In this document: one piece after another, positions 3,409-50,340 of the stretch
Layout of the letters: each line of letters starts with the position of its first letter
How positions within the stretch are numbered: position 1 is the first letter of the stretch
Source of the DNA: Pseudomonas wuhanensis
Lineage (GTDB): Bacteria; Pseudomonadota; Gammaproteobacteria; Pseudomonadales; Pseudomonadaceae
NCBI RefSeq assembly: GCF_030687395.1
Contig: NZ_CP117430.1
Coordinates: 496,001-560,000, forward strand
DNA length: 64,000 bases
Direction of reading: 5' to 3'
Translations under genes and position numbers: made by a program
Notes under the pieces: generated by a model
What the model was told of the DNA's origin: nothing
Databases searched by the model: none
What the model saw: only the letters and a program-made list of their open reading frames with translations

Positions 3409-3631
3409 TTGCTCGAAACCTGATTGGAGTGCCCCCTCTCTGGCTACTAATCAAAGTGGAGGCAACTGTACGCAGGTTAGTAGACCGGGATTTCGAGCAA
3501 GCCGGCGCACCCGAAGGTGCCCTGCGCACAGCTACCATCAAGCGCAGGAATCGAAATCCCTGACTGACAGATGCTTGTGCACCAAGCTCGAAACCACAGG
3601 CTACTAAACCCGATCACTGGAAATCAGTGAT
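3409..3631 (-). ncRNA. Candidate switching leader RNA of the DUF6124 gene
   Basis: Read on the minus strand, the leader can fold into a three-stem core: P1 3551-3560 with 3487-3496 (10 pairs), P2 3507-3511/3516-3520 and P3 3521-3527/3542-3548, plus side hairpins 3573-3577/3583-3587 and 3613-3619/3625-3631. Two blocks with the same elements, TTAGTAGCC then GGTTTCGAGC, occur at 3586-3607 and at 3411-3450; the second ends three bases before the start codon. The strand at 3477-3498 is complementary to both blocks, and it includes the 3' half of P1. Mutually exclusive folds that hide or expose the start region are therefore possible. I do not recognise the RNA class. Confidence 0.55.
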
Positions 3632-46693: not shown

Positions 46694-47913
46694 TGAGCGA
46701 CATTATCCGCCGCGACCCACGCGCCGAATGGATCGCCCGCAACCGCTTGCACCCGCTGCATGCGGCCATGCAACCGGCGCAACACAGCTGGATGGGGCCT
46801 AACGGTCTCATCCGCAAGAATCCTCACGGGATCGGTTTTATCGGCCCCAACGGCATCAAACGGATCGACCGCAGCGGCGCTCAGCAGGGCGGGGCGACCA
46901 AACGCTCAGCCGCGGTTGAAGTGCAATTGCCGCTGCATCAAGTGGCTGCACCTGTGTTCTACATCAGCGTGGTGCCGGACATGGTCGGCGGCCGCTTGAG
47001 CAGTCACGACCGCGACTTGCTCGGCCTGGCTCATCAATTGGCCGGCAAGGACGGCGCGGTACTGGCCGTGGTCTTCGGTGAGCACAAGGAAAACGCCTTT
47101 GCCACGGCTGGCGTTGACCGCTTGCTGGTGCTTGAGGGCGACGAGTTCAGTGGTTATGCACCGGAACAACGGGTCCAGGGTCTGCGGGCTGTGGATAACC
47201 AGTTCAGCCCGCGTCACTGGTTGCTGCCGGACAGCCGCAGCGGTGGCGGCGAACTGGGTCGGCGCTTTGCTGCCGCACTGGGCGAGCGCCCGGCCACGCG
47301 GGTCTGGCAGGTCAAGGATCAGGAATGCATCGGCCGTGCCGGTGCTGGCCTGCAGGACCTTGCGCGGCCGGTGGCCCGCTTGATTCTGGCGGCTGCCGAA
47401 TGCGCCGAACCGGTCAGCGAAACCCGTCACGAAGCGTTGCCGGTGGAGTTATCCACAACGGTCGCCCGCAGCCTGTCGCGGATCGAAGATCTGGGCGCTG
47501 TGGCGGTGGACCCGGCGGCGATTCCGATGGCCGAAGCCGAATTCATCTTCTCCGGCGGCAACGGGGTCAAGGACTGGGGACTTTTCCACAGGACGGCCGA
47601 AGCGTTGGGCGCGACCGAAGGTGCGTCGCGGGTGGCGGTGGACGATGGTTTCATGGCGCGCGACCGGCAGGTCGGCGCGTCCGGCACCTGGGTAACCGCG
47701 CGGGTTTACGTGGCGGTGGGGATTTCCGGGGCGATCCAGCACCTGCAAGGCATCGGTGCCTGCGACAAGGTGGTGGCGATCAACCTCGATCCGGGTTGCG
47801 ACATGATCAAACGGGCCGACCTGTCGGTGATCGGCGAGAGCGCCGAGATTCTTCAAGCCTTGATCGATGCGGTAGCGGCTTACCGCAACGACGCCAAGCG
47901 CGATGCGGCTTAA
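46693..47913 (+). CDS. etfA: Electron transfer flavoprotein alpha subunit (dgc-linked)
   Basis: A 406-residue ETF alpha, longer than the housekeeping protein because of about 75 extra N-terminal residues (LIRKNPHGIGFIGPNGIKRI). The C-terminal FAD domain is clear: VGASGTWVTARVYVAVGISG and GACDKVVAINLDPGCDMIKRAD. Its start overlaps the dgcB stop. It carries two consensus DnaA boxes (47190-47198 and 47449-47457) inside its coding sequence. Confidence 0.93.
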   Translation: MSDIIRRDPRAEWIARNRLHPLHAAMQPAQHSWMGPNGLIRKNPHGIGFIGPNGIKRIDRSGAQQGGATKRSAAVEVQLPLHQVAAPVFYISVVPDMVGGRLSSHDRDLLGLAHQLAGKDGAVLAVVFGEHKENAFATAGVDRLLVLEGDEFSGYAPEQRVQGLRAVDNQFSPRHWLLPDSRSGGGELGRRFAAALGERPATRVWQVKDQECIGRAGAGLQDLARPVARLILAAAECAEPVSETRHEALPVELSTTVARSLSRIEDLGAVAVDPAAIPMAEAEFIFSGGNGVKDWGLFHRTAEALGATEGASRVAVDDGFMARDRQVGASGTWVTARVYVAVGISGAIQHLQGIGACDKVVAINLDPGCDMIKRADLSVIGESAEILQALIDAVAAYRNDAKRDAA

Positions 47914-47928
47914 GGGAAGGAAAGGGTT

Positions 47929-48699
47929 ATGAGCACGAAAATCATCAGCCTGGTGTCCATCGGCGCCCACCCGACCTCCGGCCGGCCACGCCGCGCCGAG
48001 CAGGATGCGCGGGCGGTTGAACTGGGTTTGCAGCTGGCTGGGGATAACCTGCAAGTGCTGCATGCCGGCGACGTCGCGGAACCGGCATTGCGCGCTTATC
48101 TGGGCATGGGCCTGGAGCAGCTGCATGTGCTGGAGCAACCGGAAGGCGCTGATGCGCTGCCGGCGTTGACCGCGTATTTGCGTGATGCCGGGGCACAGGT
48201 GGTGCTGACCGGCAGTCAGGCGGAAACCGGTGAAGGCTCGGGCATGTTGCCGTTCCTGCTGGCGGAAAGCCTCGGTTGGCCGCTGGTCGTGGGTTTGGCG
48301 CAGGTCGAATCCATCGACGGCGGTTCAGCGTTGGTGCTGCAGGCCTTGCCTCGCGGGCAGCGTCGGCGCTTGAAAGTGCGCCTGCCGTTTCTGGCGACTG
48401 TGGATAACGCGGCACCCAAGCCGCGGCAGAGCGCCTACGGTCCGGCACGTCGTGGGGTATTGCAGGCGGAAGAAGTCGAAGTGGTCGACGATGAACTGCT
48501 GGCGGTGGCCACGCTGCAACCGGCCAAGCCACGGCCAAAGCGCTTGAAAGTGATCAAGGCCAAGAGCGGTGCGGATCGCATGAAGGCCGCGACGGCCAAG
48601 GCCAGTGGCGGCGGTGGGCAAGTGCTCAAGGGCGTGACCGCGCAAGCGGGCGCCGAAGCCATCCTCAAGTTGCTGATTGAAGAAGGCGTGGTTCGCTAA
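47929..48699 (+). CDS. etfB: Electron transfer flavoprotein beta subunit (dgc-linked)
   Basis: A 256-residue ETF beta partner of the preceding gene, 15 bases downstream. HPTSGRPRRAEQDARAVELG opens the AMP-binding domain and VVLTGSQAETGEGSGMLPFLLAE is the family core. With EtfA it should accept electrons from dimethylglycine/sarcosine oxidation. It holds one consensus DnaA box (48399-48407). Confidence 0.92.
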   Translation: MSTKIISLVSIGAHPTSGRPRRAEQDARAVELGLQLAGDNLQVLHAGDVAEPALRAYLGMGLEQLHVLEQPEGADALPALTAYLRDAGAQVVLTGSQAETGEGSGMLPFLLAESLGWPLVVGLAQVESIDGGSALVLQALPRGQRRRLKVRLPFLATVDNAAPKPRQSAYGPARRGVLQAEEVEVVDDELLAVATLQPAKPRPKRLKVIKAKSGADRMKAATAKASGGGGQVLKGVTAQAGAEAILKLLIEEGVVR

Positions 48700-48720
48700 C
48701 GGTCCTGTGGAGCCCGGTAA

Positions 48721-49287
48721 ATGGCTGTTGAATTTCGTTCGGCCCTGCGCGCGGATGCGCGTGAGATTGCTCGCTTGTTTCAGATTTCATCAGAAGGTGC
48801 GGCGGATTACATCTGGAGCCAACTGGCGCAGCCCGGCCAGGACCTGCTGGAGGTCGGTGCCAGTCGTTACGCTCGTGAAGACGTCGATTTCTCCTATCAG
48901 AACTGCCTGATCGCCCAGGTCGAGGGAAAGGTCATCGGCATGCTGCACAGCTACGCGATGCGCCACGACCCTCAGGCCGCTCCCGTGACCGATCCCGTCC
49001 TGGCGCCGTATGCCACGATGGAAATCCCCGACACCCTTTATATTTCGAGCCTGGCCCTGCATGAGGGCTGGCGTAATCAGGGGGTGGGCAAACAATTCCT
49101 CGCCTATGCCTACGACCGTGCCAACCGATTGGGGCTCAATGGCTTGAGCCTGATCGACTATGCGGTGAACACCGGCGCACGGCGGTTTTATGAGCGCCAT
49201 GGTTTCCGGATTGTCGATACCTGCCAGATCACGCCCCACCCAATGATTCGGGTCACGGGGGAAGCCTATTTGATGTATCGGCCTTGA
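48721..49287 (+). CDS. GNAT N-acetyltransferase
   Basis: A 188-residue acetyltransferase. The acetyl-CoA motif is HEGWRNQGVGKQFLAYAYDRA near 115-135, followed by NTGARRFYERHGFRIVDTCQI. It lies 21 bases behind etfB and may be on the same transcript. The acceptor is unknown. Confidence 0.86.
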   Translation: MAVEFRSALRADAREIARLFQISSEGAADYIWSQLAQPGQDLLEVGASRYAREDVDFSYQNCLIAQVEGKVIGMLHSYAMRHDPQAAPVTDPVLAPYATMEIPDTLYISSLALHEGWRNQGVGKQFLAYAYDRANRLGLNGLSLIDYAVNTGARRFYERHGFRIVDTCQITPHPMIRVTGEAYLMYRP

Positions 49288-50340
49288 GGCACGAACCCAA
49301 TCTATGTGGGAGCGGGTCAATGTCGATCACAGATTGTGTGCACACCAACAACGCACTGTGGTTACCCACAATCCCTGTTAGCGCTTCTGTGGATAACATG
49401 TTCGCCCCTCGCTACACCCCTTGCCCATCAAGCCCTCCAGCCCTCCGTACAAAAAATAACCAGTCTAAGCTACGGTTTTTCCGAGCTTTTTCCACAGAAC
49501 GACTTCGTTCGTAAGCCAATACTTGCCCCCAATCTCTGTTGGCGCTTCTGTGGATAAGATGTTCGCTGTCCGCTACAGGCTATATAAACCGTGGCTTTCA
49601 GTCAGTTGATCAAATAATGCTCAATTGACCCTTTTCTCTCCCTGATCCTTCCGCAAACCCTGAATTCTCACGGCTTTCAGCGGTTTTCCACAGACGTTGC
49701 AAAGTTGCCCCCAAAGTCTGTTGGCGCTTCTGTGGATAAGGTGTTTGCCATCCTCTGTACGTCATATAAAACGTGCCCTGCAGACTTCTGATCAAAAAAC
49801 GACCAATGCTTGGGTAAAACCCTGCTTCTGGATAAGTCACGGTTTTTCTTGGTTTTTTGTGAATAAATTTGGCCCGTCATCCACAGTTGTCCCCAATAGC
49901 TGTGGGTGGAGATGTGGATAACTTGTTCGCTAAACCCTGCAAGCCACGGCCTATATAGGCCACAACGCGATAGATCAGATTTCATACAGTTCTAAGGCAC
50001 TTCCTTGACTTCGATCTGTCGCGTGTCTTCACTCTCAGGGCACAAGGACAGCCGTCACTTATCCACATCTGGTTCAGGGAGAACGCGTGATGGATAGCCA
50101 GCCACATCGCTCGCACCCAACCCCTTGCGTGACCTGTGTACCGACACCCGCGACCTTGCTGCGTAAACGGATTCACCGTCGCGCCACCAATCAGCGCGCT
50201 CGCCTATAGCGCTTGAAGCCTTCCCCAAACCCTGACGCCGCTGCCATTGAGGCCCGACCGTGCCCGGTGACCAGGCGTTTGTTCGTCTATCGATTGCAGG
50301 CAACCACAGAGTTGCCCATCTGCCTGAGAGGAAATGACCC
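49288..50340. repeat. Noncoding degenerate tandem repeats, about 182-bp period
   Basis: A 1-kb stretch without a gene. Four units begin with a Pro-type block, CCCCAAT..CTGTTGGCGCTTCTGTGGATAA, and contain TATATA(A) then GATCA and a final TTCCACAG/ATCCACAG. The TGTGGATAA boxes are 161, 182 and 182 bases apart. Units agree only around these motifs, which implies selection on the motifs. A lone, shortened REP (TGTGGGAGCGGGT at 49301) lies at its left edge. The right part (50070-50340) carries the upstream region of the GMC fusion gene. Confidence 0.7.

What the first reader, a model, noticed from the sequence alone, without database searches (positions are those of the whole stretch)
47190..50067. 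Cluster of consensus DnaA boxes far from any replication gene: candidate datA/DARS-type locus
Eight exact TTATCCACA boxes plus one TTATTCACA occur within 2.9 kb; at random an exact 9-mer on either strand is expected about 0.02 times. Several one-mismatch boxes add to this. E. coli uses such clusters outside oriC (datA to titrate or inactivate DnaA, DARS to recharge it). I know of no described equivalent in Pseudomonas. In P. aeruginosa the same gene block lies in the oriC-proximal part of the chromosome, which suits a timing element.
Basis: partly seen in the sequence, partly recalled or inferred. Interest (0 to 1): 0.85.

Follow-up and report, generated by a model that had tools for sequence, protein, structure and literature searches.

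The report
Conserved DnaA-box array in Pseudomonas
About 550 kilobases from the replication origin, this Pseudomonas chromosome carries a precisely spaced array of likely binding sites for the replication starter protein DnaA that has been kept in many related species, so it is probably a control site that helps to time chromosome replication.

Summary
Four intergenic boxes anchor a ~43-bp unit: weak box (+,0), weak half-box (-,14), strong box (-,26), TGTTCGC (-,37). Of 81 loci, 69 keep four exact anchors. Anchor spacings fall only into classes about one helical turn apart, with at least 13 class changes on a tree. Boxes inside etfA/etfB keep rare synonymous codons, e.g. Leu TTA in 80 of 81. 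In 25 genomes the array lies 0.47-0.75 Mb from dnaA. The 0/14/26 geometry equals that of E. coli DARS1, but the strong site differs and no conserved IHF site was found. Most likely it is an early-replicated DnaA sink that works like datA; titration, ATP hydrolysis and reactivation cannot be told apart from sequence, and DnaA binding is untested. Unit-like matches occur in 172 of 198 family genomes, many weak. A separate DARS1-like core lies far from the origin. No Pseudomonas equivalent appeared among the titles of nine text searches.

The parts
47190..47198 (-). exact DnaA box inside etfA (codons GCT GTG GAT AAC)
   Evidence: codons GTG 81/81, GAT 80/81, AAC 81/81 over 81 loci
47449..47457 (+). 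exact DnaA box inside etfA (codons TTA TCC ACA, two of them rare)
   Evidence: TTA 80/81, TCC 80/81, ACA 81/81; TTA is 2 of 436 Leu and ACA 6 of 210 Thr codons in nine neighbouring genes
48399..48407 (-). exact DnaA box inside etfB
   Evidence: GTG 80/81, GAT 79/81, AAC 77/81; the preceding codon, whose last base is the first of the box, is ACT in 61/81
49362..49407 (+). array unit 1: I TTACCCACA (+) 49362, II 49376 (-), III strong TGTGGATAA 49388-49396 (-), IV TGTTCGC 49399 (-)
49523..49568 (+). array unit 2: I TTGCCCCCA 49523, II 49537, III strong box 49549-49557, IV 49560
49705..49750 (+). array unit 3: I TTGCCCCCA 49705, II 49719, III strong box 49731-49739, IV 49742
49887..49932 (+). array unit 4: I TTGTCCCCA 49887, II TGTGGGTGG 49901, III strong box 49913-49921, IV 49924
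49684..49692 (+). TTTTCCACA box ahead of unit 3, largely conserved
49488..49496 (+). TTTTCCACA box ahead of unit 2, present in only some relatives
49858..49866 (-). TTATTCACA between units 3 and 4; not the consensus of relatives, probably incidental
50059..50067 (+). exact DnaA box 146 bp beyond unit 4, in the GMC-gene leader; an exact + box lies 235-333 bp before the GMC start in 30 of the 32 loci in which that gene was found

Best explanation
The locus is a DnaA-binding control site outside oriC. Each of four units has one strong box (site III) that anchors DnaA in either nucleotide form, flanked by weak sites: II and IV in the same orientation 12 and 11 bp away, and I facing them 26 bp from the anchor. 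The weak sites would be filled cooperatively, mainly by ATP-DnaA. Because the units lie on one face of the helix at 150-193 bp, bound DnaA could fold the ~0.6-kb array into one complex; boxes in etfA, etfB and the GMC leader add capacity. Lying ~0.55 Mb from oriC, the array is duplicated soon after initiation and so doubles a sink that lowers free or ATP-bound DnaA and prevents early re-initiation: it works like datA. Shown: sites, selection on sequence and spacing, position. Inferred: DnaA binding, cooperativity, looping, and the direction of the effect on initiation. This overlaps with plain titration (a rival below), which differs only in having no nucleotide chemistry.
For: Four exact anchors in 69 of 81 loci (window plus 80 named Pseudomonas loci); 6 more have three in phase, 3 have two, 3 are cut by contig ends just after etfB. 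The array is kept with and without the neighbouring GNAT and GMC genes. Spacing classes about 11 bp apart, 207 gaps, period ~10.7 bp, R = 0.966, against 0.17 for etfB-to-unit 1 and 0.26 for unit 4-to-GMC lengths; at least 7+5+1 class changes on the tree. Frozen synonymous codons at the etfA/etfB boxes. Distance to dnaA 465-755 kb, median 548 kb, in 25 genomes. 131 of 138 genomic boxes lie in the ori-proximal 40% of the chromosome, as a titration system would want (E. coli precedent PMC12371093, section 6). A second array with the same unit lies about 634 kb from dnaA on the other side in this genome. A separate DARS1-like core lies far from the origin, which leaves the inactivation or titration role to the near-origin array (inference).
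Against: No canonical IHF site is conserved (at most 8 of 69 arrays at any position), although E. coli datA depends on one (PMC4585315, passage). Site II is poorly box-like in units 1-3 of this array. The I/II/III geometry is that of DARS, which acts in the opposite direction. The exact unit pattern is absent from 55 of 149 genus genomes and the array from etfA loci of other genera, so it is not a universal requirement. Anchor gaps also drift by 1-2 bp: exact lengths change at least 15, 15 and 9 times on the tree. No binding data exist. Conserved distance to oriC may be only a by-product of conserved synteny.
Confidence: 0.5

Rival explanations
1. Tandem DARS: the array reactivates DnaA. Facing DnaA molecules on sites I and II/III release ADP, so the locus raises ATP-DnaA before the next round.
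For: Site positions and orientations I(+,0) II(-,14) III(-,26) equal those of the DARS1 trio and of a trio in the DARS2 region at 166/180/192 (a second, weaker trio around the exact box at 496 was read by eye); PMC5742627 (passages) states that the spacing is common to DARS1 and DARS2. In 87 own-genome boxes outside the array, the best of 256 offset/orientation combinations for a second box with at least 6 of 8 matches is (-26,+), 6 cases against a mean of 0.55.
Against: At 7 of 8 matches (-26,+) has one case and is not the best; at least ten other combinations have 2. In DARS1 the exact box is II; here it is III and I/II are weak, so a facing ADP-DnaA dimer should be unstable (inference). The position (median about 8% of the chromosome from dnaA) is nearer to that of datA. 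This genome has a much closer DARS1 look-alike elsewhere. R1 and R2 do not recover E. coli DARS in full register.
Confidence: 0.22
2. Plain titration: the boxes simply hold DnaA and no nucleotide chemistry takes place. This overlaps with the best explanation.
For: Many strong sites near the origin; enrichment of the box over the reversed pattern in 24 of 24 same-genus relatives; titration now has experimental support in E. coli (PMC12371093, abstract and section 6).
Against: Fixed weak sites and helical phasing are not needed for simple counting.
Confidence: 0.25
3. DnaA-dependent transcription control of etfAB or a neighbouring gene.
For: The array lies in an intergenic region; DnaA is a known transcription factor (recalled; PMC8203912 seen in a search listing only).
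Against: The gene downstream differs between loci while the array stays, and in 16 of 75 loci the array starts more than 2.6 kb from the etfB start; boxes also sit deep inside etfA and etfB.
Confidence: 0.08
4. A non-coding RNA gene or a mobile repeat (REP-like) that happens to hold TGTGGATAA.
For: Repeated ~58-nt unit in an intergenic region.
Against: No covariation: 0 of 7 pairs, -3.5 kcal/mol; no Rfam match there; the unit is not dispersed like REP in this genome.
Confidence: 0.03

Closest known systems
Escherichia coli datA (DnaA-ATP hydrolysis and titration locus)
   Same: DnaA-box cluster outside oriC, with boxes 67 and 162 bp apart in one orientation, about 10% of the chromosome from oriC (datA place; oriC place recalled) against a median of about 8% here.
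   Different: No conserved IHF site found; four regular units with helically phased spacing and attached weak sites; no sequence match beyond the strong box.
Escherichia coli DARS1/DARS2 core (DnaA reactivation)
   Same: Three sites in the same orientation and spacing: +0, -14, -26 (PMC5742627 passages).
   Different: The exact box is III, not II as in DARS1; a fourth site at 37; four tandem copies; ori-proximal; no IHF site found, Fis sites not tested.
Bacillus subtilis DnaA-box clusters near oriC (recalled; not read here)
   Same: Several extra-origin clusters that restrain initiation.
   Different: Different host phylum; box arrangement not compared here.
Origin-proximal enrichment of DnaA boxes in E. 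coli and Salmonella (PMC12371093, section 6)
   Same: Boxes accumulate near oriC, suited to titration.
   Different: Looks much sharper in this genome: 7 of 138 exact boxes in 1.40-5.36 Mb, 60% of the chromosome; the paper used looser motifs, so the two are not directly comparable. Its main text has no occurrence of Pseudomonas.

Membership tests
datA | cluster of DnaA boxes outside oriC in an ori-proximal position | tested here: met
datA | IHF-binding site between essential boxes | tested here: not met
   E. coli IHF consensus with <=1 mismatch in at most 8 of 69 arrays at any position from -60 to +124 of an anchor; 63 matches in all against 29, 111 and 12 for three permuted consensus strings. 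A diverged IHF site is not excluded
datA | stimulates hydrolysis of DnaA-bound ATP | not testable with these tools
   needs biochemistry
DARS | three boxes I-III with I opposed to II and III at fixed spacing 14 and 12 | tested here: met
   geometry only, as site II is weak in units 1-3 of this array
DARS | exact box at II beside a near-consensus I (as in DARS1) | tested here: not met
   exact box is III; I is mostly TTRYCCMCA
DARS | sequence homology to E. coli DARS cores | tested here: not met
   no match with R1; with R2 only the strong box or short partial stretches
DARS | promotes ADP release from DnaA | not testable with these tools
   needs biochemistry
oriC | lies beside dnaA | tested here: not met
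   545 kb from dnaA; the sequence just before dnaA carries its own four exact boxes
oriC | AT-rich unwinding element | not tested
   -
structured ncRNA | conserved fold with covariation | tested here: not met

The most novel reading that the evidence does not exclude
Pseudomonadaceae run a DnaA activity cycle written in one site grammar (I+0, II-14, III-26, IV-37). Anchored-at-III units in helically phased arrays near the origin (this locus and a second one at the liv-type operon) act as the inactivating or titrating side. Anchored-at-I/II palindromic cores far from the origin (FKBP gene-DUF1232 gene) act as the reactivating side. Moving the strong box within one geometry would switch the sign of regulation.
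Probability: 0.3. Interest if true: 0.88.

Novelty: new variant of a known kind. Interest (0 to 1): 0.76.

Why it matters
Control of initiation outside oriC is known in mechanism mainly from E. coli (recalled). A conserved, quantised, multi-unit DnaA array in Pseudomonas, with a DARS1-like core elsewhere, gives a second lineage in which titration and DnaA switching can be separated by simple deletions and 5-bp versus 10-bp insertions. It also suggests that the DARS three-site geometry is more widespread than the enteric sequences, and offers a test of whether box arrangement rather than box number sets the effect.

Tried and rejected
Rejected: (1) chance or base composition: shuffles, reversed-pattern controls and simulation. 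(2) Protein conservation as the cause of the in-gene boxes: synonymous codons are frozen. The 4-codon window rank was clear for 47190 (top 0.7% of windows) and 48399 (top 1.6%) but only top 8% for 47449, because that window includes a codon outside the box. (3) Promoter of GMC or GNAT: many arrays lie in loci where one or both genes were not found. (4) ncRNA. (5) Dispersed repeat. (6) IHF site: not found. (7) TTTTCCACA at 47582 in etfA is not conserved (Leu codon modal fraction 0.43). (8) R1 and R2 against E. coli datA/DARS regions: nothing in full register. (9) Literature: nine searches (five of them with Pseudomonas among the terms; one search found no paper) gave no Pseudomonas datA/DARS paper among the titles listed. 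Lists were capped at 10-25 titles and only open-licence PMC papers are held.

Caveats on counts. The non-window units were found with a model that already encodes the geometry, so their agreement is partly circular; others (87 of 134 non-array boxes, in regions fetched because they hold boxes, L100 also because of one search hit; spacer left free) are the freer checks. Four of the six (-26,+) cases come as pairs from two loci, L102 and L105. R1 matches contain the DnaA box itself, which is common in these genomes, so E-values near 0.01 mean little; roughly 80 of the 198 genomes have a best E of 1e-5 or less by my count from the listing. Of the 67 facing pairs that I counted, 16 are one inherited locus of genus g1 (G292 of g22 has it too), and one reversed-control match per strand occurred (G189). 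Such palindromes could also be hairpins or sites of another dimer. Among the 20 loci, L147 holds three scattered exact boxes and L158 one exact and six one-mismatch sites, but no array. The anchor chain accepts gaps of 140-200 bp only; loci with an extra anchor (L054, L083, L085, L096-L098) also show gaps of 55-56, 66 and 105-106 bp. In one search, 5 of the 29 genomes were left out (G063, G099: array and dnaA on different contigs; G236, G228, G289: array position not taken), genome sizes are rounded, and some genomes have several contigs (G065, the 755-kb outlier, has two). In one search one of 32 unit 4-to-GMC lengths was assigned to the wrong box (L051); one search repeats it from the data (R 0.26 instead of 0.23). 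In one search the 13 same-order genomes are mixed: in some the box is not enriched over the reversed pattern.
Full report
Observation. One search confirms the eight TTATCCACA and one TTATTCACA boxes. The window is G000:C1:496001-560000 of a single 6,590,972-bp contig whose first base lies inside dnaA. TTATCCACA occurs 138 times in the genome against 28 for the reversed pattern. 131 of 138 lie within about 1.4 Mb of dnaA; counts per 0.3 Mb of distance from the origin are 51, 25, 23, 21, 11, 1, 3, 2, 0, 1, 0. By exact boxes the finding is the densest 2.9 kb of the chromosome (8; next 5); simulations with 131 boxes never gave more than 5. G018, a complete relative, shows the same domain: among the 100 of 133 boxes listed, 49 lie in 0-1.33 Mb and one between 1.33 and 4.0 Mb. 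All 24 same-genus relatives hold more boxes than reversed-pattern matches, by 1.3- to 15-fold (median about 7); the 13 same-order genomes are mixed.

Anatomy. Three boxes lie in the two electron-transfer-flavoprotein genes (etfA, etfB), five exact boxes in the intergenic region between a GNAT gene and a GMC-type gene (Pfam). That the block is the dimethylglycine/glycine-betaine cluster is recalled. Four intergenic boxes sit in copies of a 58-nt repeat spaced 161, 182 and 182 bp. Over 69 loci the conserved block is TTgcCCcCAat..CTGTtgGcGcttcTGTGGATAA..TGTTcGC. Read as DnaA sites: I (+,0) mostly TTRYCCMCA, II (-,14) TGTKGG, III (-,26) the exact box, IV (-,37) TGTTCGC.

Conservation. Including the window, 69 of 81 have four exact anchors in phase, 6 have three, 3 have two, and 3 are cut by the contig end. 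The reversed control gives 4 hits in 1.6 Mb against 491 boxes near etfB in the 80 loci. The array stays where GNAT or GMC was not found, and in 16 of 75 loci it starts more than 2.6 kb, at most 6.5 kb, from the etfB start. In the genus draw, 94 of 149 genomes have at least one exact TGTGGATAANNTGTTCGC, with 0 control hits; in the table each genome's hits share one strand. 20 further etfA loci, 17 of them from other genera, have no such array, so it is clade-restricted.

Spacing. Gaps in the 69 arrays: 149-151 (28), 159-161 (37), 171-172 (4); 180-183 (61), 192-193 (8); 172 (2), 181-184 (67); nothing in between. On an etfA-etfB tree (quick method) the classes change at least 7, 5 and 1 times; exact lengths, which include 1-2-bp drift, at least 15, 15 and 9 times. 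Concentration at a 10.7-bp period is 0.966 over 207 gaps, against 0.26 for unit 4-to-GMC and 0.17 for etfB-to-unit 1 lengths. This is what helical phasing of bound proteins would produce. In E. coli DARS2, as I read the construct names, a 5-bp shift of a Fis site harmed more than a 10-bp shift (PMC4245941, passage).

Coding boxes. In etfA, TTA-TCC-ACA is kept in 80, 80 and 81 of 81 loci and GTG-GAT-AAC in 81, 80 and 81, against mean modal-codon fractions of 0.77 (etfA) and 0.71 (etfB). TTA is 2 of 436 Leu codons and ACA 6 of 210 Thr codons in nine neighbouring genes.

Position. In 25 genomes with the array (own plus 24 of the 29), its distance from dnaA is 465-755 kb (median 548 kb); 23 have it on the rpmH side, two (own and G018) on the dnaN side with the boxes turned accordingly, as symmetric inversion would give. 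Sizes are rounded, and synteny alone could keep the distance.

Wider family. A sequence-only model of the unit (R1) finds the four window units at 57-66 bits and weaker ones elsewhere in the genome, e.g. 5822282, 5956445 and 855625 at 26-29 bits. It finds at least one match at E <= 0.01 in 172 of 198 Pseudomonadaceae genomes and 18 of 19 genera; because the model includes the common box itself, only the stronger ones (best E <= 1e-5 in roughly 80 genomes by my count) carry weight. A second array, beside a liv-type ABC-transporter operon (only its ATPase was scanned, Pfam ABC_tran; the liv name is recalled), keeps a spacing of 259 bp and a second one of 208/209 or 217-220 bp in seven loci, and the same gene block in three g22 genomes carries a pair 167-168 bp apart. 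In g25, clusters with 124-bp pairs (once 113) occur. The consensus of units outside the window is TTgCcCaCAaa..CtGTGga.cc..cTGTGGATAA.cTGtg; there site II is clearly box-like. These were found with R1 or in loci fetched for it and are partly circular. The freer test scores second boxes at 256 offsets and orientations around 87 own-genome boxes outside the array: at 6 of 8 matches the best is (-26,+) with 6 (mean 0.55); at 7 of 8 it has one, while (-14,+), (-12,-) and (12,-) are among at least ten that have 2.

Comparison with known systems. E. coli DARS1 and a trio in the DARS2 region have sites at +0, -14, -26; which DARS2 trio is the published core I did not check. PMC5742627 (passages) says the spacing is shared by DARS1 and DARS2, and PMC8682772 (passages) that boxes I and II act head to head. 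The Pseudomonas unit has the same geometry, but its exact box is III. A strong anchor flanked by weak same-direction sites is more like ATP-DnaA assembly at oriC or datA (inference). No canonical IHF site is conserved. Hence: it works most like datA, it is built in DARS geometry, and it is filed as a member of neither.

A DARS1-like element elsewhere. At G000:C1:2016559-2016588, where boxes are otherwise rare, TTATCCACA-CAAAT-TGTGGATAACC-T-TGTGAACAG lies between an FKBP-type gene and a DUF1232 gene. The pattern with 5- and 3-nt spacers occurs in 45 of 198 genomes, 5 of 19 genera, with 0 reversed-control hits. With the spacer left free at 0-24, 65 of the 67 facing exact pairs that I counted in the listing have exactly the 5-nt DARS I-II spacer (16 of them one g1 locus); the other two have 9 and 17, and 17 equals the I-III offset of 26. 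The gene pair is shared by 16 of 16 g1 loci and one g22 locus (L195-L210, L220), and three of four g28 loci examined also have the DUF1232 gene. This supports a DARS side in this family and shifts the near-origin array towards the sink role (inference).

Literature. Nine text searches showed no title on extra-origin DnaA control loci in Pseudomonas; the library holds open-licence papers only. PMC12371093 was seen as outline with abstract, section 6 and a term search; PMC4585315, PMC8682772, PMC5742627 and PMC4245941 as passages; all others as search listings.

Verdict. A real, selected, multi-unit array of DnaA-type sites; most likely an early-replicated DnaA sink. Binding and the sign of its effect on initiation remain to be shown.

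Noticed in passing
L110:6559-6588 (G000:C1:2016559-2016588): DARS1-like palindromic DnaA-box core (I/II/III at 0/14/26) between FKBP-type and DUF1232 genes in the otherwise box-poor part of the chromosome; found in relatives at the same gene pair.
   Followed up: partly
L100:11370-11950 (G000:C1:5956370-5956950): Second DnaA array with the same unit grammar beside a liv-type ABC-transporter operon, about 634 kb from dnaA on the other side; spacing 259 bp kept in seven loci, second gap 208-220 bp.
   Followed up: partly
whole genome G000: Exact DnaA boxes are nearly confined to the ori-proximal 40% of the chromosome: 7 of 138 in 1.40-5.36 Mb; similar in G018.
   Followed up: partly
L189, L192, L194 (genus g25): Dense DnaA-box clusters with repeated 124-bp pairs (once 113 bp), 38 and 49 kb from contig ends in G288 and G272; gene context not identified.
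   Followed up: no
L015:7648-7750 (G000:C1:6507648-6507750): Three exact DnaA boxes 46 and 48 bp apart inside a GntR/aminotransferase (MocR-type) regulator ORF, between its two domains, where the protein repeats Leu-Ser-Thr.
   Followed up: no
L001-L002 (G000:C1:10957-32904): 13 exact DnaA boxes within 22 kb on the dnaN side of the origin.
   Followed up: no
window 3455-3542 (-): Rfam C4 antisense RNA (RF01695, 70.9 bits), a family known from phages (recalled), so a prophage or satellite may lie near the left end of the window.
   Followed up: no
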